A DNA stretch of 33,204 nucleotides from Candidatus Magasanikiibacteriota bacterium. GTDB taxonomy: Bacteria > Patescibacteriota > Patescibacteriia > Magasanikbacterales > UBA922. Within the stretch, counting starts at the first letter, position 1. Every line of letters starts with the position of its first letter. The translations under genes and the position numbers were made by a program. The notes under the pieces were generated by a model, which saw nothing but the letters and a program-made list of their open reading frames with translations, did no database searches and was not told where the DNA came from. Positions 1-10,182 of this stretch are shown here, piece after piece. Location: contig JACPGR010000012.1 in NCBI GenBank assembly GCA_016182415.1, positions 1 through 33,204 on the forward strand. Direction: 5' to 3'.

Positions 1-21
1 GTTCGAATCCCTCGGCGTGTA
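1..21 (+). tRNA. 3' end of a tRNA, cut by the window edge
   Basis: The window opens inside a T arm: the loop TTCGAAT followed by the stem half CCCTC and seven acceptor bases GGCGTGT plus a discriminator A. The anticodon lies outside the window, so the isotype cannot be read. A CCA tail is not directly encoded after the discriminator, unlike in the next tRNA. It lies 12 bases before tRNA-Thr, so the two are probably cotranscribed. Confidence 0.6.
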
Positions 22-33
22 CACCGTCTACAG

Positions 34-109
34 GCCGTCATAGCTCAGTTGGTAGAGCGCATCCATGGTAAGGATGAGGTCTCCAGTTCAATCCTGGATG
101 ACGGCTCCA
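34..109 (+). tRNA. tRNA-Thr (anticodon GGT)
   Basis: A full cloverleaf is visible. Acceptor GCCGTCA pairs with TGACGGC, the D arm contains AGCTCAGTTGGTAGAGC, the anticodon stem CATCC/GGATG encloses loop ATGGTAA (anticodon GGT at 67-69), and the T arm is CCAG/CTGG around TTCAATC. The discriminator is T and the CCA tail is encoded (107-109). Its 3' part is repeated at 114-175, the pattern expected when an integrating element has used the gene as an attachment site. Confidence 0.95.
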
Positions 110-113
110 GTAA

Positions 114-175
114 GTCTCCAGTTTCAGCCCGCAGGCTGATCCGCCCGGTTGGAGGACAATCCTGGCTGACGGCTC
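114..175 (+). repeat. duplicated tRNA-Thr 3' end, interrupted by a 33-bp hairpin insert
   Basis: Bases 114-123 plus 157-175 repeat bases 79-107 of tRNA-Thr with a single mismatch (28 of 29). The copy is split in its T loop by a 33-base insert at 124-156, which is a copy of the small double-hairpin repeat. The duplicate is not a working tRNA. It looks like an attachment-site or tandem-duplication relic at the left edge of the accessory island. Confidence 0.7.
124..156 (+). repeat. small double-hairpin repeat (family 2), copy 1
   Basis: Two adjacent short hairpins: TCAGCC-cgca-GGCTGA, then TCCGCC-cggtt-GGAGGA. The same layout recurs at 13209-13239 (opposite strand), 14998-15029 and 17548-17577. 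Here the exact ends can be read, because the interrupted tRNA copy has an intact counterpart at 79-107. Confidence 0.7.
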
Positions 176-267
176 AAAATGAAAACTGTTTTTTATAGCA
201 TTTTTTTTAATTGACAATTAAATACTTGTATTTTTCTTCAATAGGTGTATATTAATTTTTTTAATTT

Positions 268-530
268 GTAACTACTCAGCATGCTTTACTTGTGAACACA
301 AGCCCTGCCTGCGACTCGACTAAGCTCGTCGAAATCCGACAGGCATGGTACTCGTCGCGTCTTTTTTTACTTTAAATTCTAGGAAGAAAGCGGAAAACGG
401 CTCTGTACAACACCCGTGAGGGTGTTCGTCTTCTCTAGAAACGCCCAAACACCCTCACGGGTGTTGTACTAGGCTAAGATAAGCTAAATTAAATTAGCTA
501 AATTGTTTGTCAAGAGGGGTGAGTAGTTAC
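268..530. mobile_element. 263-bp inverted-repeat element with GTAACTACTCA termini
   Basis: The termini GTAACTACTCA (268-278) and TGAGTAGTTAC (520-530) are perfect inverted repeats. The left end continues into a stretch (TGCTTTA, then GTGAAC) shared with the element at 30946-31104. The interior holds a long palindrome at 405-469 and no open frame worth calling. It looks like a non-autonomous MITE-like element. This element fills most of the gene-free stretch 176-780. Confidence 0.65.
405..469. repeat. 22-bp inverted repeat whose arms are themselves hairpins
   Basis: The left arm (405-426) and right arm (448-469) are perfect reverse complements. Each arm can also fold alone, as AACACCC-GTGA-GGGTGTT and its mirror. 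The 21-base spacer contains TCTAGA. It is nested within the GTAACTACTCA element. Confidence 0.7.
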
Positions 531-582
531 TTTGATTTTAACTTTATTCAACCATAACCGCTCAACAGTTATCAAAAAATAA

Positions 583-681
583 TTAAAGCAAGTTAGTATA
601 AATAAGGCAAAACGGCAGACTATTGAAGCATTTCAGGAAAAAGGTATTTGGAAAATTGGTGTTTACAAGAATGGTAAATAA
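583..681 (+). pseudogene. possible gene remnant, 32 codons without a start
   Basis: A short open frame ends IWKIGVYKNGK-stop and is followed 15 bases later by a rho-independent terminator, which suggests it is the tail of a former gene. There is no ATG, GTG or TTG between the upstream stop and the frame. No family is recognised. It may simply be noise. Confidence 0.2.
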
Positions 682-696
682 ACAGAATTGTAATGA

Positions 697-723
697 AAAA
701 TCCGCTAGATGAGCGGGTTTTTT
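697..723 (+). terminator. rho-independent terminator
   Basis: Stem CCGCT-agatg-AGCGG is preceded by AAAAA and followed by a run of six T (718-723). It insulates the methyltransferase promoter, which begins 2 bases later. Confidence 0.75.
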
Positions 724-725
724 CG

Positions 726-754
726 TTGACGGGGTGGGTGGGGTGTGCTATGAT
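726..754 (+). promoter_or_regulatory. sigma-70-type promoter of the methyltransferase operon
   Basis: A -35 box TTGACG (726-731) and a -10 box TATGAT (749-754) are separated by 17 bases. The -10 has a TGn extension (746-748). The expected start site is near 761, giving a leader of about 20 bases before the ATG at 781. Confidence 0.75.
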
Positions 755-762
755 TGAGTTAC

Positions 763-778
763 TTTTTCAATTGAAAAA
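763..778. promoter_or_regulatory. perfect 16-bp palindrome in the methyltransferase leader
   Basis: TTTTTCAATTGAAAAA lies between the predicted transcription start and the ATG of the methyltransferase. It is placed where an operator would act. It would also form a hairpin next to the start codon, where no Shine-Dalgarno sequence is seen. Either a repressor site or a translational brake is possible. Confidence 0.5.
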
Positions 779-780
779 AT

Positions 781-1854
781 ATGGCAAACCACAATCTCAC
801 CAATGCAAAAAAGGCAAAAAATGATGAATTTTATACGCAATATAGCGATATCCAAAAAGAAATTGATGCTTATATTGAGTTCAATTCGGACGTCTTTCGA
901 GGAAAGACTATTTTGTTGCCGTGTGATGATCCGGAGTGGAGCAATTTTACCAAGTTTTTTGCGCAAAATTTTGAGCGATTTGGGCTCAAAAAGCTCATTA
1001 GTACGAGCTATGCGGCGGATAGCAAAAACTACAAGACAAATTATCAGCCGACCTTGTTTGAAAAGAATGATCCGAAGTTTGATAAAAAGAAGACAGCGAC
1101 AAAAGGAAAGATATATATTCTCGATCATGACAAGACCGGGGATGGGAAGATAGATGTGGAGGATCTGGATTGGGAATATATGAAAGGGGATGGAAATTTC
1201 AAGAGTGACGAAGTTACGAAGCTTCGAGACGAAGCGGATATTATTATTACGAATCCGCCGTTTTCACTGTTTCGTGATTTTTTGGCGTGGATTGTGACGG
1301 CGGAGAAGTTGTTTGTGATTATTGGGAATAAAAATTGTATAACCTATAAGGAGGTATTTCCTTTAATAAAAAATAATAAAATGTGGGTTGGTTCAACGAG
1401 TTTTAACCAAGACATGCTATTTGTTTCTCCTGAGAAAATTGATCCGACAGAAAAACCTAGTACTGCAACTAGGACAGTGGATGGTATAGTCTATTTACGA
1501 TCACCCTCAGTTTGGTTTAGTAGTATTGACCATGGTCGTCGTCACCAAGCATTGCCATTAATGACTATGGAAGATAATATAAAGTTTAATACGCAAATTC
1601 AGAAAAACGAAAATAGTTATAAAAAGTATGATAACTATGATGCAATAGAAGTGCCGTTTACCAATGCGATTCCGAGTGATTATGATGGCGTGATGGGTGT
1701 GCCGATTAGTTTTTTGGATAAATATAATCCGGAGCAGTTTGAGATAAAGGGTATAGACAGATATGTTGAGGATAATCCGAATTATGGAAAACGTTTTACT
1801 ATAGATGGAAATGAAATTTATGCAAGAATTTTGGTTAGGCATAAGAAAAAGTAA
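781..1854 (+). CDS. EcoRI-type adenine-specific DNA methyltransferase
   Basis: The 357-residue protein matches the EcoRI adenine methyltransferase family, which transfers a methyl group from S-adenosylmethionine to the N6 of adenine. The N-terminus (AKNDEFYTQYSDIQKEI, from about residue 12) is typical of this group. ILLPCDDPEWSNF at 44-56 is the cofactor-binding region and NPPF at 158-161 is the catalytic motif. The length is close to M.EcoRI (326 residues). GAATTC is the family paradigm target, but specificity cannot be read from sequence. It heads a four-gene operon; the next gene starts 4 bases after its stop. No EcoRI-like restriction enzyme is adjacent, so it may be an orphan or may be paired with the GIY-YIG-like protein at 2246. 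Confidence 0.88.
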   Translation: MANHNLTNAKKAKNDEFYTQYSDIQKEIDAYIEFNSDVFRGKTILLPCDDPEWSNFTKFFAQNFERFGLKKLISTSYAADSKNYKTNYQPTLFEKNDPKFDKKKTATKGKIYILDHDKTGDGKIDVEDLDWEYMKGDGNFKSDEVTKLRDEADIIITNPPFSLFRDFLAWIVTAEKLFVIIGNKNCITYKEVFPLIKNNKMWVGSTSFNQDMLFVSPEKIDPTEKPSTATRTVDGIVYLRSPSVWFSSIDHGRRHQALPLMTMEDNIKFNTQIQKNENSYKKYDNYDAIEVPFTNAIPSDYDGVMGVPISFLDKYNPEQFEIKGIDRYVEDNPNYGKRFTIDGNEIYARILVRHKKK

Positions 1855-1858
1855 TTAT

Positions 1859-2218
1859 ATGATATTAGATATAAATTTTTTTTACTGGTTTACTAGCATA
1901 TTAGCAACAATTATTTTAAGTTTTATAACATTTAAATTTATGAACAAAATCAAGAATATAAAAATTTATCAAAAAAGTGAAAAAATGAAAGATGTTATCG
2001 GTGCTGATTTTGAATTGGGAGACGGAGAAAATATTCATATTAAGGATATGACGATATCGCAGGATGCTAAAGAAATGCAAAATGTAACAGGATTATCTAT
2101 TAACGCTAATGGCAAACAATCCGCTCGCTTACAGGGAGTAGAAATTAAACAGCCATCTAGGTATCTAAAAATTTCGGATGATTCAAACGGAAAGGTAATT
2201 ATCAATAAGCAAAATTAA
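1859..2218 (+). CDS. small single-pass membrane protein, unknown function
   Basis: The ATG at 1859 is chosen because it follows the methyltransferase stop by 4 bases. An upstream in-frame ATG at 1805 would overlap that gene by 50 bases. The product has 119 residues. Residues about 5-26 form one transmembrane helix rich in F, I and L, followed by a basic stretch (KNIKIYQKSEKMK). The rest is soluble, acidic and glycine-containing (FELGDGENIHIKDMTISQD), then ends in QPSRYLKISDDSNGKVIINKQN. I do not recognise a family. Its place between a methyltransferase and a nuclease-like gene makes a role in the same system likely, perhaps tethering it to the membrane; this is inference. Confidence 0.65.
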   Translation: MILDINFFYWFTSILATIILSFITFKFMNKIKNIKIYQKSEKMKDVIGADFELGDGENIHIKDMTISQDAKEMQNVTGLSINANGKQSARLQGVEIKQPSRYLKISDDSNGKVIINKQN

Positions 2219-2245
2219 GTTATTTTATGAAATTTAACAACTAAT

Positions 2246-2851
2246 ATGAAAGGAATCATTTACATCATGACAACTGCTGTTTCCGGTTTGGTAAAAATTG
2301 GACAAACCGGTACGAAAAATTATCAAGAGAGAATGCGAAACCTGGAGGCAAATGGGTACTATAATGTTGCAGGATTAAAAAGATTTTTTGCAATTGAATT
2401 GGAAGATTATGATGATAAAGAATCTCTTTTACATGATATTTTTAATAAACATCGTGTTGGTGAAAGTGAATTATTTGCACTCGATCAAGAATTGATACGG
2501 CAACTCCTACTCTCGTTTAAGGGTAATATTATTTATCCCGAAAATATTGACCAAGAAAAAGAATTTGACAAGGTATCACAGGTAAGAAAGCAAAGTAATT
2601 TGTTTAGTTTTTATAAAAAAGGTTTGAAAAATGGTGATGAAATTATTTTTAAAGGTGACAAAAATGTACTGGCAAAAGTCGTTGGTGAGCGTGAAGTGGA
2701 ATATGAAGGTCAAGTCTGGAAATTGTCGCCACTTACATACAAATTATATGAACAACGTGGAAAATTGAATAATTGCGGAGCATATGCTGGCGCTGATCAT
2801 TTCACGTATAGAGGTACAAAACTGCGAGATTTATCTGATATCGTTACATAA
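2246..2851 (+). CDS. T5orf172/GIY-YIG-type nuclease-like protein
   Basis: The 201-residue protein starts MKGIIYIMTT..SGLVKIGQTG and continues with R30..L33, the pattern of the T5orf172 (MUG113) branch of the GIY-YIG superfamily, whose members are DNA-cutting or DNA-binding. The domain covers about residues 1-90. The C-terminal 75 residues (YEGQVWKLSPLTYKLYEQRG, then YRGTKLRDL) resemble the small modules such as DUF4357 or RAMA that often follow nuclease and methylase domains; that match is tentative. It is the third gene of the methyltransferase operon, 27 bases after the membrane protein and 6 before the DUF3800 gene. It is the best candidate for a restriction partner of the methyltransferase, but this is not shown. 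Confidence 0.7.
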   Translation: MKGIIYIMTTAVSGLVKIGQTGTKNYQERMRNLEANGYYNVAGLKRFFAIELEDYDDKESLLHDIFNKHRVGESELFALDQELIRQLLLSFKGNIIYPENIDQEKEFDKVSQVRKQSNLFSFYKKGLKNGDEIIFKGDKNVLAKVVGEREVEYEGQVWKLSPLTYKLYEQRGKLNNCGAYAGADHFTYRGTKLRDLSDIVT

Positions 2852-2857
2852 AATTTT

Positions 2858-3595
2858 ATGCGTTACCATTTTTTTCTAGATGAAACGGGAGACCATGGAT
2901 TGAATTATGTGGATTCTAATTTTCCATTATTTTTATTAGCCGGTTGCTTATTTTCAGAAACGGAATTGACGAGGTTGGAAAAGGAAGTGTATAATTTCAA
3001 AAGAGAATTTTTCAACACGGAAAAGGTCATACTTCATTCGAGAGAGATACGAAAATGTGAGGGTTCTTTTCAAATCCTATTTGATTTGGAGTTGAAAAAA
3101 ACATTTTACCAAAAATTAAATAGTATTATGTTGGGAGCGGATTTCATTATTATCGGTGCCGGAGTAGATAAAAAAGAATATGTCAAAAAATATGGATGCA
3201 ATGCCAGTAATCCGTATAATATAGCTTTGGCATTTATCATAGAACGCTTGATATTTTGTTCTGACGCTAATTCTGTAGAAAAAATTGACATTAAAATTGA
3301 AAAAAGAGGTAAAAAAGAAGATGCCCAGCTATTGGAACAATATAATAGGATTAGAGATTTAGGTACTTATTATGTTTCTACTGAAAGATTTAAAAATAGG
3401 ATAGGAAAATTTGAATTTTCTCTTAAAAGAGATAATCATTTAGGCTTGCAGATAGCCGATTTGTGTGCGTATCCCTTGGCAAGGCATATTCTTAATTCAG
3501 AAGAACCATATATTCCATTTAATATAATTAAAGATAAAATATATTGTGATCAGAAAGGAGAATATAAAGGTTATGGTCTTAAAATTTTTCCATAA
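2858..3595 (+). CDS. DUF3800 domain protein
   Basis: The 245-residue protein begins MRYHFFLDETGDHG, the hallmark of DUF3800, with acidic residues D8, E9 and D12. It ends with the second hallmark GLQIADLCAYPLARH (about 196-210, D201). DUF3800 proteins are thought to have an RNase H-like fold with a metal-binding acidic centre and are frequent in phage-defence islands and mobile elements; their biochemical activity is poorly known. The start is 6 bases after the previous stop, and a terminator begins 2 bases after its own stop, so it closes the four-gene operon. Length is normal for the family. Confidence 0.85.
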   Translation: MRYHFFLDETGDHGLNYVDSNFPLFLLAGCLFSETELTRLEKEVYNFKREFFNTEKVILHSREIRKCEGSFQILFDLELKKTFYQKLNSIMLGADFIIIGAGVDKKEYVKKYGCNASNPYNIALAFIIERLIFCSDANSVEKIDIKIEKRGKKEDAQLLEQYNRIRDLGTYYVSTERFKNRIGKFEFSLKRDNHLGLQIADLCAYPLARHILNSEEPYIPFNIIKDKIYCDQKGEYKGYGLKIFP

Positions 3596-3597
3596 AA

Positions 3598-3622
3598 CAA
3601 AAAGTCCGTATGTGGACTTTTT
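3598..3622. terminator. bidirectional rho-independent terminator
   Basis: AAAAAGTCC-gtatgt-GGACTTTTT is a symmetric hairpin with A and T tails, so it can stop transcription in both directions. Rightward it ends the methyltransferase operon. Leftward it would end the transcript that starts from the promoter near 3744-3771. Confidence 0.8.
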
Positions 3623-3737
3623 GCCGACCGGGGACACCCCGATCCAATATTCTGATTGTTGTGTAGACCTGAGTACTGGCAAAAGTATTAGCGATAGTTG
3701 AACAGATTTTCAACATCTCCTCTTACTACTCTGACCT
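3598..3737 (-). ncRNA. candidate small RNA (or tiny gene) on the minus strand
   Basis: A good minus-strand promoter (3744-3771) and the bidirectional terminator at 3598-3622 bracket about 140 bases. The predicted transcript includes a GGGG-TGT-CCCC hairpin near 3631-3641. It also holds AAGAGGAG directly before an ATG at 3716-3714 that opens a 45-codon frame to 3579. That frame runs through the terminator into the DUF3800 gene, so a protein product is less likely than an RNA. No known RNA family is recognised. The function is unknown. Confidence 0.4.
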
Positions 3738-3743
3738 AATGTT

Positions 3744-3771
3744 AGTATAACATAAAATATTATGTTGTCAA
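3744..3771 (-). promoter_or_regulatory. minus-strand promoter with an operator-like inverted repeat
   Basis: Read on the minus strand: -35 TTGACA (3771-3766), a 16-base spacer, -10 TATACT (3749-3744). The spacer is almost filled by a perfect inverted repeat AACATAA-aata-TTATGTT (3749-3766), a position at which a bound repressor would block RNA polymerase. Confidence 0.6.
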
Positions 3772-3833
3772 GGTTATCCACAGAAATGAAAAAAGTGAGT
3801 AATTGAGGAATACTCGATAACTGTTTTTGAAAA

Positions 3834-3858
3834 GAAAAATCGAGAATTCCGATTTTTC
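3834..3858. promoter_or_regulatory. hairpin in the leader of the DUF262-HNH gene
   Basis: GAAAAATCG and CGATTTTTC pair around the loop AGAATTC. It lies 46 bases upstream of the ATG at 3905. It could act as an attenuator or terminator. The loop contains GAATTC, the paradigm target of the methyltransferase family found upstream, which may be chance. Confidence 0.45.
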
Positions 3859-3904
3859 TACAAAGACGACCAATTAACCACAATAAAATTATAATTTTTA
3901 CACT

Positions 3905-5068
3905 ATGAAAACAACCCTTAAAACATCTATAACCGTCAAAGACATCTGCAAAGGATTTGTCTACAATGAATATGAAGCTAAAGGACTCTTTGGTTTGTCT
4001 GGAAAATTAACTATCCAACCCGAATACCAACGAAACTATATCTACGCTGATGGAAAAAGAGATGTCGCCGTCATCGAATCTATTCTCAAGGGGTATCCGA
4101 TTGGGTTGTTATATTTTGTAAAAATAACGGATGATAATCTCGAAGTACTTGACGGACAACAGCGTATCACCAGCATCGGGCGATTTGTTACCAATAGATT
4201 AGCGATTAAAGATGAAAATGGCATGGAACAAAACTTTGATAGTATTGCCAAAGATAAACAGAAAAAAATATTAGAGACAACTCTTCTGATCTACGAATGT
4301 GAAGGCAGTGAAAGTGAAATAAAAGAATGGTTCAAGACGATCAATATTGCCGGTGTACCACTCAATGAACAAGAATTATTGAATGCGGTCTATTCCGGAC
4401 CATTTGTTACACGCGCCAAAGAAGAATTTAGCAATAGCCAAAATGCGAATGTGCAAAAATGGAGCGCGTATATAAAGGGAAGTGCAAACAGACAAGATTT
4501 TCTCGCACGTGCACTCGATTGGGTGAGTAAGGGGAATATTGGGGACTATATGAGTAGTCACCGCAAAGATAGTAATATTACCGAACTAAAAAATTATTTC
4601 AATAGTGTCATCGACTGGGCATCGAGTGTGTTTACTGACGTAGAAAAAGAAATGTGCGGACTCGAATGGGGGAGACTGTATGAAGCATATCATAAAAAAG
4701 CTTACGACCCGGCAAACGTATCAAAAGCAGTACAAAAACTCTATGCTGACCCTTATGTCAAAAATCGTAAAGGTATTTTTGAATATATTTTGGGTGGTGA
4801 AACAGATCAAAAATTACTTGATATTCGCATCTTTGATGAGGCTACTAAAAAATCTGTGTATGCAGAACAGACAGAAAAAGCTGAGAAGAAACATATATCA
4901 AATTGCCCGCTTTGTACTATGGGTCACGATGCAAACAAAGACAAAATCTGGAGTATCAGTGATATGGATGCCGACCATGTGACCGCGTGGAGCAAAGGCG
5001 GAAAAACTCTGGCAAAAAATTGTCAGATGCTTTGTAAGACGCACAATCGGGCAAAAGGGAATCGGTAA
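3905..5068 (+). CDS. DUF262-HNH endonuclease (GmrSD-like)
   Basis: The 387-residue protein joins two domains. The N-terminal DUF262 (ParB/Srx-like) domain has IQPEYQRNY at 37-45 and the nucleotide-binding motif DGQQR at 83-87. The C-terminal HNH domain has a zinc pair CPLC (334-337), DADH (355-358), N372 with C373 and C377, and H380-N381. Fused DUF262-HNH proteins such as GmrSD are modification-dependent restriction enzymes that cut DNA with modified bases, using a nucleotide-binding domain to control a nuclease. Both domains look complete. The start ATG follows an AT-rich leader with no clear ribosome-binding site. DUF2130 and SEC-C genes follow on the same strand at short distance, forming a second defence-like group. 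Confidence 0.85.
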
Positions 5069-5096
5069 AATGTGAGAAATATTATGCAGGTCTACT

Positions 5097-6605
5097 ATGG
5101 ATAACACGGAACAGAAAATTAAATGTCCTAAATGCGGAGATTCAATTTCTATTGACGCTGTTTTAACGCATCAAATTGAGGAAAGAATAAAAAAAGAACT
5201 TAGTAATGAAAATAGTCTCAAAGAAGCTGAGATAGAAAAACGAAGAAAGGAGTTGGGGGAGCAGAAAGCCAAGCTTGATGAAGTCCAAAAAAATACGCAG
5301 ATTGAAGTCAACAAGAAAGTAGCTGAAAAACTTATTATAGAAAAAGGTATTTTGTGGAGACAGGCACAAATAGAAGCAGACAAACAAAAGGCGGGTGAAT
5401 TGAAACTTCTGGAGGAGCAAATAAAAAATAAAGATGAAAAATTATCAGTAGCAAATTCTGAGAGTTTAAAAGCACGAGCAGATAGACAAAAGCTTGAGGA
5501 AGAAAAGAAGAGCTTTGAACTAGAAAAGATAAGACAGATTGAAAAAGAGCGTGCAAAGATAGAAGAAGAAGCTTTTGCGCTGGCAACAAAACAACATGAG
5601 ATAGACTCAATAAAATTGCGCAAGCAGATAAAGGATTCAGAAAAAGAGATGGAAACAGAAAAGAAAATACTCGAGGAACAGCTCGTCGAAAAAGAAAAGA
5701 AATTAAGAGAAGCATATCAAAAAGAACTAGAAATACGCAAGGAAAAAAATAAACTTGAGGAAGATAAACAAAATTTTGAATTAGAAAAACAACGTCAGCT
5801 TGACGAGGAACGGAAGCAGATAACAGAAGAAGCCAGTAAAAAAGCAACCGAGGATCAAAAATATATTATTGCCCAACTAGAGAAGCGTTTGACTGATGCT
5901 ACAAAAGCAAAGGATGAGCTGGCGCGTAAGCTTGAACAAGGCTCACAACAAACACAAGGTGAGGTATTGGAGCTTGAACTAGAAGATGTGTTAAGAGCTG
6001 AGTTTCCTTTTGATGAAATCATGCCTGTGCCAAAAGGAGTGAATGGCGCTGATATTGTTCATAAAATCATTGATCGATCCGGTCACGTATGTGGTCAGAT
6101 AATTTGGGAATCTAAAAAGACCAAAGCATGGAGCGACGGATGGATCCAAAAACTTAAAGATGATCAGCGGGCGATCAAAGCCGATTTGGCGGTGATTGTA
6201 TCTGCTGTTTTGCCTGAAGGGGTAAGAGGTTTTGTGTTTCGTGATGGTGTCTGGATTTGCGATATCAAACTTATCTCAGCCTTAGCCATGGCGCTTAGGT
6301 TGAATTTGGAATCAGTCGCTCGTGAAAAAACAATGTCAGTAGGTAAAAATGAAAAAATGGAAATTCTGTATATATATTTGACTGGCGTGGAGTTCAGGCA
6401 ACGAGTAGAAGCAATTGTAGAGGCATTTTCCAGTATGGATGACGGATTGAAAAAAGAGAGAATGGCGTATGAAAAAATTTGGGCAGAGAGGGAAAAGCAA
6501 ATTAGAAAAGTGATGAATAACACAATCGGCATGTATGGAGATTTGAGTGGCTTAGTCACCTTACCACAGATAAAAACTTTGGAATTGGGAGCAGGGAAAG
6601 AATAA
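5097..6605 (+). CDS. DUF2130 protein: zinc ribbon, long coiled coil, nuclease-like domain
   Basis: The 502-residue protein begins with a zinc-ribbon half (CPKCG, residues 10-14). Residues about 20-290 are a highly charged coiled coil rich in E, K and Q. The C-terminal DUF2130 domain (about 295-495) has an acidic start (LRAEFPFDEI) and a PD-(D/E)xK-like core: D319 in GADIVH, then E338 and K340 in IIWESKK, the pattern of restriction-endonuclease folds. Predicted function is a DNA-associated nuclease with an SMC-like arm; no reaction is established for the family. It lies 28 bases after the DUF262-HNH gene, with AGG 6 bases before its ATG, and is probably cotranscribed. Confidence 0.8.
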   Translation: MDNTEQKIKCPKCGDSISIDAVLTHQIEERIKKELSNENSLKEAEIEKRRKELGEQKAKLDEVQKNTQIEVNKKVAEKLIIEKGILWRQAQIEADKQKAGELKLLEEQIKNKDEKLSVANSESLKARADRQKLEEEKKSFELEKIRQIEKERAKIEEEAFALATKQHEIDSIKLRKQIKDSEKEMETEKKILEEQLVEKEKKLREAYQKELEIRKEKNKLEEDKQNFELEKQRQLDEERKQITEEASKKATEDQKYIIAQLEKRLTDATKAKDELARKLEQGSQQTQGEVLELELEDVLRAEFPFDEIMPVPKGVNGADIVHKIIDRSGHVCGQIIWESKKTKAWSDGWIQKLKDDQRAIKADLAVIVSAVLPEGVRGFVFRDGVWICDIKLISALAMALRLNLESVAREKTMSVGKNEKMEILYIYLTGVEFRQRVEAIVEAFSSMDDGLKKERMAYEKIWAEREKQIRKVMNNTIGMYGDLSGLVTLPQIKTLELGAGKE

Positions 6606-7913: not shown

Positions 7914-7987
7914 GGGCGCGTCGTATAATGGTAGTACTTCGGTCTCCAAAACCGAATGCGTAGGTTCGATTCCTACCGCGCCTGCCA
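7914..7987 (+). tRNA. tRNA-Trp (anticodon CCA)
   Basis: Acceptor GGGCGCG pairs with CGCGCCT (one G-T pair). The anticodon stem TCGGT/ACCGA encloses loop CTCCAAA (anticodon CCA at 7946-7948), and the T arm is GTAGG-TTCGATT-CCTAC. The discriminator is G, as expected for Trp, and CCA is encoded at 7985-7987. Confidence 0.95.
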
Positions 7988-8093: not shown

Positions 8094-8908
8094 TGGAACA
8101 AAGTCATTTAGAGCTTTTGGCAAAAACTTTAGACGATGTAAAACACCAAAATGGAGTTGAATTTTGGTATGCTCGAGAGCTTTTCTTCATACTTGGCTAC
8201 TCCAGATGGGACAGTAATTAGACGTGCTAAAGAGGCGTGTGAGAATGCTCGTGGTAGCGTTTCAGACCATTTTCAGGACGTGACGAAAATGGTCAAGATT
8301 GGCTCAGAAGCACAACGGGAGATGCAAGATATTAAGTTGACTAGGTATGCGTGCTATTTGGTTACAATCAATGGTGATCCACGAAAAGAGGAAATAGCTT
8401 TTGCACAGGCATATTTTGTGACACAGACACGGAAGGTAGAGATTTTGCAAGAACGAATGGCAGAGTTTGAGAGGATCGATGCAAGAGAGAAGCTCAAAAT
8501 AACAAAAAAAGAGTTTAACAATATTGCCTTTATTCGTGGAGTTGATGGCAGAGGTATTGGTGAGATTCGTGCGAAAGGCGATGAGGCTCTTTTTGGTGGT
8601 AAAACCACAGACGAAATGAAACAAAAATTTGGTGTTTCACCAAAAAAACCTTTGGCAGATTATTTACCTAATGTAACATTGAAAGCAAAGGACTTGGCAA
8701 CAGCGATGACGATAGAAAAAACTAGACAACAAATCTTTCAGGGAAAAATGAGATCTGCGATGAACATGTTGTCAATAACACAAACGTACGTGGTGCTTTG
8801 ACAAAAACGGGGATTTATCCGGAGAGTCTACCTCCTGCGGAGGATATAAAGAAAGTAGAAGCGAAACATAAAAAAGAAATGAAGGCACTACAAAAAAAAA
8901 CAGCGTAA
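8094..8908 (+). pseudogene. dinD-like DNA-damage-inducible protein D, two frameshifts
   Basis: Three frames joined give a DinD-family protein. The ATG at 8094 opens the first part (NGVEFWYARELFFILGYSRWD), which ends at a stop near 8224. The second frame carries VIRRAKEACENARGSVSDHF, VTKMVKIGSEAQREMQDIKLTRYACYLV, NGDPRKEEIAFAQAYF and GDEALFGG, all typical of the family, to about 8740. The third frame carries DEHVVNNTNVRGALTKTGIYPESLPPAEDIKKVE and stops at 8908. The first break (about 8209-8213) seems to have lost a few codons; the second is one base short in an A run (about 8745-8749). DinD is SOS-linked in E. coli. Here it is probably inactive unless both shifts are errors. Confidence 0.8.
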
Positions 8909-8973
8909 GGAGTTGAATAATGCATTAAAAAATAGGTTGGATATAAAAATATTATAGTTCAATACCTCAACGT

Positions 8974-10182
8974 ATGAAGATTTGTCTCATCAACAATTTA
9001 TATCCTCCCTACGCACGAGGAGGGGCGGAGCAGGTGGTACATCGGACTGTTGAAGGATTGCGTGAAAAAGGGTATGAGGTGGTTTTGGTGACAAGTATGT
9101 CTGGGGAGAAAGAAATTGAAGAAAAACAAAATTTGAAAATTTATCGCATGTATCCGCGAAATATTTTTTTTTATACAGATGCGCATCGGCATAATTTTTT
9201 CATGCGTTTTATTTGGCATGTGATTGATATGTTCAATAGTTCAGTATGCAAAGAAGTCAAACATATTTTGAAACAAGAACAGCCTGATATTGTACATACG
9301 CATAATTTGATGGGGCTTAGTTTTTTGATTCCGCGTGTAGTTAGAAAATTACAGATTAAACATGTACATACGGTGCACGACGTACAGTTGGTCGAGCCAA
9401 GCGGAATCATTCTTAAGACTAAAGAAAATTCATGGCGATACACGGGATTTCCTACCAAGTTCTATACCTGGGTAATGAAACAACTGATGGGGTCGCCGGA
9501 GGTGGTGATTTCGCCATCGCAGTTTCTATTAGACTTTTATCGAAGTAGAGGATTGTTTCAAGGTACTCAAACGATACTTCTTCGTAATCCATTAACATTA
9601 AATTTTGTACGTCGAAAGTCCGCAGTTAAACGTCGAAAAGATTATGGTGAATTATTTAATTTTCTATATTTGGGACAGATTGAAGAACATAAGGGTGTAT
9701 TTTTACTCGCCGAAGCATTTGAGAAAGTTAAAAATGCGAAATTGCATATTGTGGGGGATGGATCGAAGTTGGATGAGTTAAAAAATATTGTTACTGAAAA
9801 TAATTTGGAAAATATCGAATTTTATGGTCGCGTAGATCGAGACAAATTACCAGAGCTTTTTTCGCATATTGATATGACGATTGTCCCATCGCTATGTTAT
9901 GAAAATTCTCCGACAGTGATTTTTGAAAGTTTGTATTTTGATGTACCGGTACTTGCAAGTCGTATTGAAGGGATTGCAGAGCTTATTGAAGAAGGGAAAA
10001 ATGGGTTTACGTTTGAGACAGGGGATCTTGAGTCGCTTCAAGAAAAGATGGAGTGGTGTATAGAGCATGTTGTTGACATCAAAAAAATGGAACTTAAGAC
10101 TCCGACTTTGATGAGGTCAGAGGGTGAATATGTGACTTCGTTGATCAGTCTATATACTGGGCACACGGATGACACCCTGTAA
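8974..10182 (+). CDS. GT4-family glycosyltransferase
   Basis: The 402-residue protein is a GT-B-fold transferase of family GT4. It opens MKICLINNLYPPYARGGAEQ, the acceptor-domain motif with GGAE at about 16-19. The donor-domain motif ENSPTVIFES followed by VPVLASRIEGIAELIEEGKNG lies near residues 310-350 and gives the E-x7-E pair that binds the nucleotide-sugar. It should transfer a sugar to a lipid-linked or surface glycan at the inner membrane face. It is the first gene of the polysaccharide locus. A gene on the other strand converges on it with 33 bases between stops. Confidence 0.88.
   Translation: MKICLINNLYPPYARGGAEQVVHRTVEGLREKGYEVVLVTSMSGEKEIEEKQNLKIYRMYPRNIFFYTDAHRHNFFMRFIWHVIDMFNSSVCKEVKHILKQEQPDIVHTHNLMGLSFLIPRVVRKLQIKHVHTVHDVQLVEPSGIILKTKENSWRYTGFPTKFYTWVMKQLMGSPEVVISPSQFLLDFYRSRGLFQGTQTILLRNPLTLNFVRRKSAVKRRKDYGELFNFLYLGQIEEHKGVFLLAEAFEKVKNAKLHIVGDGSKLDELKNIVTENNLENIEFYGRVDRDKLPELFSHIDMTIVPSLCYENSPTVIFESLYFDVPVLASRIEGIAELIEEGKNGFTFETGDLESLQEKMEWCIEHVVDIKKMELKTPTLMRSEGEYVTSLISLYTGHTDDTL

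What the first reader, a model, noticed from the sequence alone, without database searches (positions are those of the whole stretch)
781..3595. Candidate defence operon: EcoRI-type methyltransferase, membrane protein, T5orf172 nuclease, DUF3800
Four genes lie between one promoter and one terminator with gaps of 4, 27 and 6 bases. The methyltransferase has no recognisable EcoRI-like nuclease beside it; the GIY-YIG-like protein is a possible effector. DUF3800 is a frequent but unexplained defence-island protein. The small single-pass protein could place the system at the membrane. I do not know this combination as a named system.
Basis: partly seen in the sequence, partly recalled or inferred. 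Interest (0 to 1): 0.72.

Follow-up and report, generated by a model that had tools for sequence, protein, structure and literature searches.

The report
Restriction-modification operon carrying extra nuclease genes
A bacterial DNA-cutting immune system, in which one enzyme marks the cell's own DNA and a second probably cuts unmarked DNA, carries three extra genes between its two parts; one of them, a small nuclease with a DNA-binding tail, turns up almost unchanged inside unrelated immune systems of this kind in related bacteria.

Summary
The four genes are real and placed as described, but the boundary was drawn one gene too early. The EcoRI-type methyltransferase's partner is the gene 309 bases downstream (3905-5068), a DUF262-HNH protein, which follows the methyltransferase in 73 of 80 homologous loci. 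The locus is thus a restriction-modification (R-M) pair with three genes lodged between M and R. That junction holds other cargo elsewhere (12 of 119 loci: CBASS cyclase plus Cap15, Fic, AAA_13, a NucC-like protein, unknowns); p119 and DUF3800 occur there in none of the 119. The T5orf172 gene recurs: M-T5-R in four other genomes, and 18 of 28 relatives in or beside R-M operons of type I, II or III. It is a GIY-YIG nuclease with a RAMA-like C-terminus. In one clade it is 90-94% identical across type I, type III and EcoRI-type loci, while flanks fall to chance level and dN/dS is 0.03-0.07. Best reading: a portable accessory nuclease that plugs into R-M operons; its action (second cut, methyladenine reading or guard) is inferred, not shown.

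The parts
726..754 (+). promoter-like site before the methyltransferase; an overlapping 19-base string occurs twice in the genome
   Evidence: 10 of 12 matches, TG before the -10; the string only at 718-736 and at G000:C82:8600-8618
781..1854 (+). M: EcoRI-family adenine methyltransferase, 357 aa, NPPF motif kept
   Evidence: PF13651 384.9 bits; 69 of 71 near-invariant family residues kept (2 conservative changes, L134M and D139N); about 40% identical to the methyltransferase beside the annotated EcoRI enzyme on an E. coli plasmid
1859..2218 (+). p119: small protein with one N-terminal membrane helix and a possible small beta domain; no relative found
   Evidence: no relative with support; model poor (pLDDT 57.7; helix 2-47, strands 76-117); hydrophobic peak from residue 7
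2246..2851 (+). T5: GIY-YIG nuclease domain (about aa 1-99) plus C-terminal RAMA-like domain (aa 117-201, bases 2594-2848)
   Evidence: model pLDDT 79.6; VIA-align Z 9.3 to CcrM RAMA, 8.1 and 7.8 to MPND, 6.2-7.6 to HIGLE/Slx1; Y6, R29, E75 identical in 32 of 32 aligned proteins
2858..3595 (+). DUF3800 protein (predicted RNase H-fold nuclease)
   Evidence: PF12686 61.9 bits; fold statement from PMC10910872 and PMC12669027 (passages)
3598..3623 (+). terminator-like hairpin between DUF3800 and R
   Evidence: -12.9 kcal/mol, z -5.3
3905..5068 (+). R: DUF262 (GmrSD_N, DGQQR motif) + HNH protein, the methyltransferase's usual partner
   Evidence: PF03235 74.3 bits, PF01844 26.1 bits; REase_II 298 bits; partner of M; near-invariant residues incl. 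D83 G84 Q85 Q86 R87 and H358, N372, H380, N381 present

Best explanation
The locus is a two-part R-M system (M = EcoRI-family 6mA methyltransferase, R = DUF262-HNH nuclease) with accessory defence genes lodged in the M|R junction. M marks the host DNA; R, using the NTP-binding DUF262 domain and the HNH domain, cuts DNA lacking the mark (inferred from families and gene pairing). The T5 protein is a portable R-M accessory: its RAMA-like domain binds DNA, probably in a way that depends on adenine methylation or on what the R-M enzymes do to DNA, and its GIY-YIG domain makes an additional cut, giving the R-M system a second nuclease that phage must evade. DUF3800 (RNase H-fold) and the membrane protein p119 are locus-specific additions. 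Shown: the M-R pairing, the embedding, the recurrence and mobility of T5, the conserved GIY-YIG residues, the RAMA-like model. Inferred: every activity, the cooperation of T5 with R-M, and the role of methylation.
For: M-R pairing: R downstream of M on the same strand in 73 of 80 loci of genome contigs (63 within 260 bases, many overlapping by 4), and 4 of the 7 misses run off the contig; in the phylum sample 35 of 39 loci. Embedding: 12 of 119 loci have foreign genes between M and R. T5 recurrence: 18 of 28 non-window matches in two genome samples lie in or beside R-M operons: 8 with this M family, 4 type I, 3 type III, 3 other type II incl. EcoRV and a MutH-like one. T5 between M and R in L228, L231, L232, L234. 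Portability: the window's T5 is 84% identical to that of L231 while M is 46% and R 39%; L148 (type I), L229 (type III), L232 and L228 (EcoRI-type) share 92-94% in T5 with flanks at chance level apart from one pair; dN/dS 0.026-0.072 in that clade. RAMA-like fold. Intact residues.
Against: No activity is measured. In the 119 loci gathered by M, T5 lies between M and R in none and beside M-R in 5 (L043, L054, L155-L157); the four M-T5-R loci came from a T5-directed search. 10 of 28 T5 matches are not at an R-M locus (3 of them truncated, partial or a fragment, and 2 weak hits that are probably not T5). Pfam's RAMA model did not hit any of 14 T5 proteins, and Foldseek alone gave E = 0.1 for CcrM. 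MPND's RAMA showed no 6mA preference in PMC9963953 (passages). In this window R is parted from the rest by 309 bases and a hairpin, so co-expression with R is not assured.
Confidence: 0.6

Rival explanations
1. The four genes 781-3595 are a self-contained new defence system: methylation marks self, T5 and DUF3800 are effectors, p119 anchors them at the membrane.
For: Tight spacing, one promoter-like site, hairpin after the fourth gene.
Against: The quartet was not found in 119 other M loci, nor in the 28 loci fetched around T5 matches or the 4 around the best DUF3800 matches; M's constant partner is R.
Confidence: 0.07
2. T5 is an independent type IV enzyme that cuts foreign DNA carrying 6mA in particular contexts, and rides in R-M operons only because they are kept and expressed.
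For: RAMA-like domain; PMC11037411 notes GIY-YIG-RAMA fusions and suggests 6mA-dependent restriction (passage); no relative of two C5 methyltransferases in any of 36 T5 loci tested, although C5 methyltransferases pass the cut-off in 17 of 92 genomes of the phylum.
Against: It would risk cutting DNA marked by the four methyltransferase families (PF13651, PF01555, PF02384, PF02086) with which it shares operons; RAMA of MPND showed no 6mA preference.
Confidence: 0.2
3. T5 (and the other embedded genes) are guards of the PrrC kind: silent while the R-M complex is intact, triggered when a phage inhibits it.
For: PrrC embedded in a type IC locus is the known precedent (PMC12707154 passage); an AAA_13/PDC-S06 protein, CBASS and Fic occupy the same M|R slot elsewhere.
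Against: A guard should fit its R-M complex, yet near-identical T5 proteins serve type I, type III and EcoRI-type loci with unrelated subunits.
Confidence: 0.13
4. T5 is a selfish free-standing GIY-YIG endonuclease gene that spreads from junction to junction.
For: Best PHROG hit is a homing endonuclease family; the moving unit is one ORF with flanks at chance level; some copies lie in phage contigs.
Against: Preference for R-M operons of unrelated sequence (18 of 28), strong purifying selection (dN/dS 0.026-0.178 in all pairs where dS could be computed), a RAMA-like C-terminal domain, no shared flanking sequence.
Confidence: 0.1

Closest known systems
EcoRI R-M system
   Same: Methyltransferase of the same Pfam family, about 40% identical.
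   Different: The nuclease is DUF262-HNH, not the EcoRI fold, and lies 3' of M.
GmrSD / SspE / BrxU (DUF262-DUF1524 enzymes)
   Same: R has the DUF262 domain with the DGQQR motif and an HNH domain.
   Different: Short (387 aa), HNH PF01844 and no DUF1524 hit, and constantly paired with a methyltransferase.
GIY-YIG-RAMA fusions and wH-GIY-YIG 6mA-dependent enzymes (PMC11037411, passages seen)
   Same: T5 has a GIY-YIG domain and a RAMA-like C-terminus; the paper also saw EcoRI-like methyltransferases near wH-GIY-YIG genes in four cases.
   Different: In the passages seen the RAMA fusion is only noted; here it is tied to R-M operons of three types.
PADLOC candidate PDC-S57
   Same: T5 matches this single-gene defence candidate.
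   Different: No paper naming it was found, so its function is not described there.
Defence genes embedded in R-M operons (DarTG2 in type I, PMC12255303; PrrC, PMC12707154; Payne et al. 2024 preprint, title only)
   Same: Foreign defence genes between or beside modification and restriction genes.
   Different: Host here is an EcoRI-M/DUF262-HNH pair, with a different cargo list.

Membership tests
Type II-like R-M system (EcoRI-M/DUF262-HNH pair) | Methyltransferase gene with a linked nuclease gene | tested here: met
   73 of 80 and 35 of 39 loci have R downstream; the window has both, motifs intact
Type II-like R-M system (EcoRI-M/DUF262-HNH pair) | R cuts unmethylated sites that M protects | not testable with these tools
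   needs enzymes or a methylome
EcoRI R-M system | EcoRI-type methyltransferase | tested here: met
   PF13651 384.9 bits
EcoRI R-M system | EcoRI-fold endonuclease next to it | tested here: not met
   Pfam scan of the next nine genes downstream shows no EcoRI endonuclease; no ORF of 60 aa or more lies between 199 and 747 upstream
GmrSD type IV family | DUF262 (GmrSD_N) domain | tested here: met
   PF03235 74.3 bits
GmrSD type IV family | DUF1524 C-terminal nuclease | tested here: not met
   one search shows HNH PF01844 and no DUF1524 at E up to 1
GmrSD type IV family | Cuts modified DNA only | not testable with these tools
   biochemistry needed
GIY-YIG-RAMA fusion nuclease | GIY-YIG domain with catalytic Y, R, E | tested here: met
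   PF10544/PF13455; Y6, R29, E75 in 32 of 32 (that these are the catalytic ones is recalled); Slx1/HIGLE fold Z 6.2-7.6
GIY-YIG-RAMA fusion nuclease | RAMA domain | tested here: met
   by fold only: Z 9.3, 8.1, 7.8 to the RAMA structures of CcrM and MPND over residues 117-201; no Pfam sequence hit, Foldseek E 0.1
GIY-YIG-RAMA fusion nuclease | 6mA-dependent activity | not testable with these tools
   biochemistry needed
PADLOC PDC-S57 | Match to the PDC-S57 models | tested here: met
   181.4, 113.7 and 69.8 bits
Embedded defence genes | Foreign genes between the R-M genes, same strand | tested here: met
   window; 12 of 119 other loci; CBASS, AAA_13 and NucC-like cargo named by PADLOC

The most novel reading that the evidence does not exclude
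GIY-YIG-RAMA proteins are a universal second nuclease of adenine-methylating R-M systems: one conserved protein that works with type I, II and III systems alike because it reads only the adenine-methylation state of the DNA, or a nick or end that every R-M system makes, and not a sequence. It moves between operons as a single ORF.
Probability: 0.3. Interest if true: 0.78.

Novelty: new variant of a known kind. Interest (0 to 1): 0.56.

Why it matters
Restriction systems are thought of as self-contained. A nuclease that is swapped as one ORF among unrelated R-M types, under strong purifying selection, would mean that these systems share a common helper. It also gives a natural system in which to settle whether RAMA domains read N6-methyladenine, which is disputed (PMC9963953, PMC11037411; passages seen). 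The M|R junction as a cargo slot also offers a way to find new defence genes, some of them with no known family.

Tried and rejected
Rejected: the quartet as one conserved system. Tried without result: relatives of p119 in 286 genomes of the phylum (only E 0.007-0.01 hits), in viral contigs and plasmids; its model is too poor to search with. Solved-structure sequence searches for T5, R, M and DUF3800 gave nothing relevant. No Rfam DUF3800 motif in the window or, at a lax threshold, in 1-5100. The DUF3800 relatives read in context (4 of 13 other matches: L159-L162) are not in this R-M type; one (L159, 52% identical) directly follows a PF01555 methyltransferase. T5 relatives in viral contigs: 10 loci by profile, of which L184, L185 and L187 lie beside R-M-like genes by phmmer. 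Absence of C5 methyltransferases from T5 loci: only two C5 queries were used, and from the frequencies I reckon roughly that about 3 of 18 would be expected, so this is weak. The genome is probably that of a small-genome CPR/Patescibacteria-like bacterium, an inference from size and relatives, not looked up. VIA-align rows below Z 8 were not used except the HIGLE/Slx1 rows, which agree with the sequence families. Print: searches for DUF262 with EcoRI methyltransferase, T5orf172 (46), DUF3800 (47, 66), embedding (18, 72), RAMA with GIY-YIG (52, 94), PDC-S57 (93); in their listings and the passages read I saw no account of this locus or of T5 as a general R-M accessory. The Payne et al. 2024 preprint is not held; I recall, from no call, that PADLOC's PDC candidates come from that embedding approach, so part of this may already be known there.
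Full report
WHAT IS THERE. The window holds M (781-1854, EcoRI-family methyltransferase), p119 (1859-2218), T5 (2246-2851, T5orf172), DUF3800 (2858-3595), then, after 309 bases with a hairpin (3598-3623), R (3905-5068, DUF262 plus HNH), all on the + strand. M and R look intact: in alignments with about 59 family members each, M keeps 69 of 71 near-invariant residues, the two changes being conservative, and R carries the DGQQR and HNH residues.

With profiles for M and R, 63 of 80 have R within 260 bases downstream on the same strand, 10 have R after a longer gap, 7 have none, of which 4 run off the contig (L006, L017, L065, L079) and 3 do not (L051, L067, L074). In the window's phylum 40 of 379 genomes have M (38 over the cut-off); of the 39 loci from the 37 other genomes over the cut-off 27 are direct, 8 have a gap, and 4 lack R (2 at contig ends). 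No locus of one set matched the other at 90% or more DNA identity. So R, not T5 or DUF3800, is M's partner; both match PADLOC's type II models.

THE SLOT BETWEEN M AND R. Of the 18 loci with a long gap, 6 hold a further M or pieces of M (L020, L031, L040, L070, L071, L178) and 12 hold foreign genes: L008 (CBASS cyclase 284 bits, Cap15 effector, Fic), L037 (ORF6N), L038 and L039 (unknown), L080 (one-helix protein and Fic), L164 (DUF6602, NucC-like in PADLOC), L165, L166, L168 and L169 (unknown; L169 strongly hydrophobic), L167 (DUF2806), L170 (AAA_13, PDC-S06 778 bits). The window's cargo of p119, T5 and DUF3800 is one more case. Embedding of defence genes in R-M loci is known (DarTG2, PMC12255303, passages; PrrC, PMC12707154, passage; Payne et al. 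preprint, title only).

T5 IS A GIY-YIG-RAMA PROTEIN. The N-terminal part matches T5orf172/MUG113 and folds like HIGLE and Slx1 (residues 1 or 2 to 99-116); residues 117-201 of the model (block pLDDT 89-92 over 121-160, 82 at 161-170, 57 at 171-180; pTM 0.48, so the two domains' mutual placing is open) match the RAMA domains of CcrM (Z 9.3, rmsd 2.6, 77 aligned) and MPND (Z 8.1 and 7.8), the three best of 995 chains aligned. Foldseek's own E-values were weak (0.1) and no Pfam RAMA hit was seen in 14 proteins. Y6, K17, G19, T21, R29, E59 and E75 are identical in 32 of 32 aligned proteins; that Y, R and E are the catalytic GIY-YIG residues is recalled knowledge.

WHERE T5 LIVES. In 379 genomes of the phylum there are 14 other matches (12 full-length; G020 and G237 weak and probably unrelated); 9 lie in or beside R-M operons: type III (L147, L151), type I (L148, L150, L158), type II with DUF6997 (L153), and this M family (L155, L156, L157); L149, L152 and L154 do not. 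In 380 genomes of the class there are 14 further matches; 9 lie at R-M loci: L226, L228, L231, L232, L234 (this M family), L229 (type III methyltransferase, cut by the contig end), L230 (type I), L227 (EcoRV), L224 (MutH-like); L225 (AAA), L233 (Bro-N), L235 (truncated), L236 (partial) and L237 (27-residue fragment) do not. Together 18 of 28. Assignment rests on Pfam for the key genes and on phmmer or my own profiles for the rest; genes were called by a simple longest-ORF rule. Among the loci gathered by M outside the phylum sample: L043 (Prevotella, M-R-x-T5) and L054 (Bacilli, T5 just before M, weaker profile hit). A Prevotella plasmid, as annotated, has HTH, GIY-YIG and WYL genes and, four genes on, a type I methyltransferase and S gene.

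T5 MOVES AS ONE ORF. Window and L231: T5 84% identical, M 46%, R 39%. T5 of L148 (type I), L229 (type III), L228 and L232 (EcoRI-type) and L233 (no R-M) is 90-94% identical; the tree groups them irrespective of host operon (support 98/99 for that five-row clade, 95/93 for window plus L231; deeper forks uncertain, long branches flagged). Gene DNA is 83-90% identical in that clade, while identity falls to 22-38% beyond 20 bases upstream, except for L148/L229 (65%, where the sequence before T5 is alike), and to 18-48% beyond 20 bases downstream. dN/dS is 0.026-0.072 within the clade; over all pairs where dS could be computed it is 0.026-0.178, and for 10 pairs dS is saturated. So the moves are old and the protein has stayed under strong purifying selection whatever its host operon.

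IN THE SAME GENOME. Contig C82 carries a remnant: the 3' end of a T5 gene (35 codons, 83% identical) followed by an antirepressor-like (RhuM-like, by eye) reading frame in pieces, and before it the only other copy of the 19-base promoter string found at 718-736. So a related cassette has been here before, with different cargo after T5.

MECHANISM. M protects, R cuts unmarked DNA, T5 adds a nuclease whose RAMA-like domain binds DNA. As T5 serves unrelated R-M types, it cannot easily depend on one recognition site or one subunit; it would have to read something common: adenine methylation as such, or the DNA damage made by restriction. DUF3800 proteins are described as RNase H-fold nucleases found as accessories of some CRISPR types (PMC10910872, PMC12669027, passages). 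p119 may place a complex at the membrane; nothing here supports or refutes it. All activities are inferred.

NOVELTY. The kind, accessory genes in R-M operons, is known, and GIY-YIG-RAMA fusions were noted (PMC11037411, passage). New, as far as the searches listed in Tried and rejected go: the EcoRI-M/DUF262-HNH pair as a cargo site, and one near-identical GIY-YIG-RAMA protein spread over three R-M types.

Noticed in passing
window 34-109 and 157-175: A tRNA-Thr gene, 19 bases of whose 3' part (89-107) recur with one change at 157-175; the defence genes start just after it and a tRNA-Trp lies at 7914-7987, so the stretch may be an island between two tRNA genes.
   Followed up: partly
window 405-470: A strong inverted repeat (-44.5 kcal/mol, z -9.4) with relatives at three other places in the genome (C5, C60, C97): a small dispersed palindromic element.
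   Followed up: partly
window 1129-1164 (M, aa 117-128): An EF-hand-like loop (DKTGDGKIDVED) in the methyltransferase; a loose EF-loop pattern is present in 54 of 80 relatives, and PDB parvalbumins give a weak hit there (E 0.33).
   Followed up: partly
G000 C82 (locus L163) 8600-9600: Decayed T5 3' end plus a RhuM-like frame behind a copy of the window's promoter string.
   Followed up: partly
window 8151-8801: A DinD-like protein (NCBIfam 204 bits, below its cut-off; PADLOC PDC-S13 228 bits), another defence candidate near the R-M locus.
   Followed up: no
window 5097-6605: DUF2130 coiled-coil protein directly after R (28 bases between them); a relative is near M-R in only 1 of 80 loci (L081).
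   Followed up: partly
L178 8176-8883: By eye, a DUF3800-like protein 10 bases after R in a genome whose M is broken by stops; not hit by my DUF3800 profile.
   Followed up: no
L008 5910-8731: A CBASS cyclase-Cap15 pair plus a Fic gene sitting between M and R of a Moraniibacteriota genome.
   Followed up: yes
L229 5200-5886 and L230 5687-6346: RadC-family genes directly after T5 in a type III and a type I locus (Pfam for L229; L230 by likeness only), perhaps another shared accessory.
   Followed up: no
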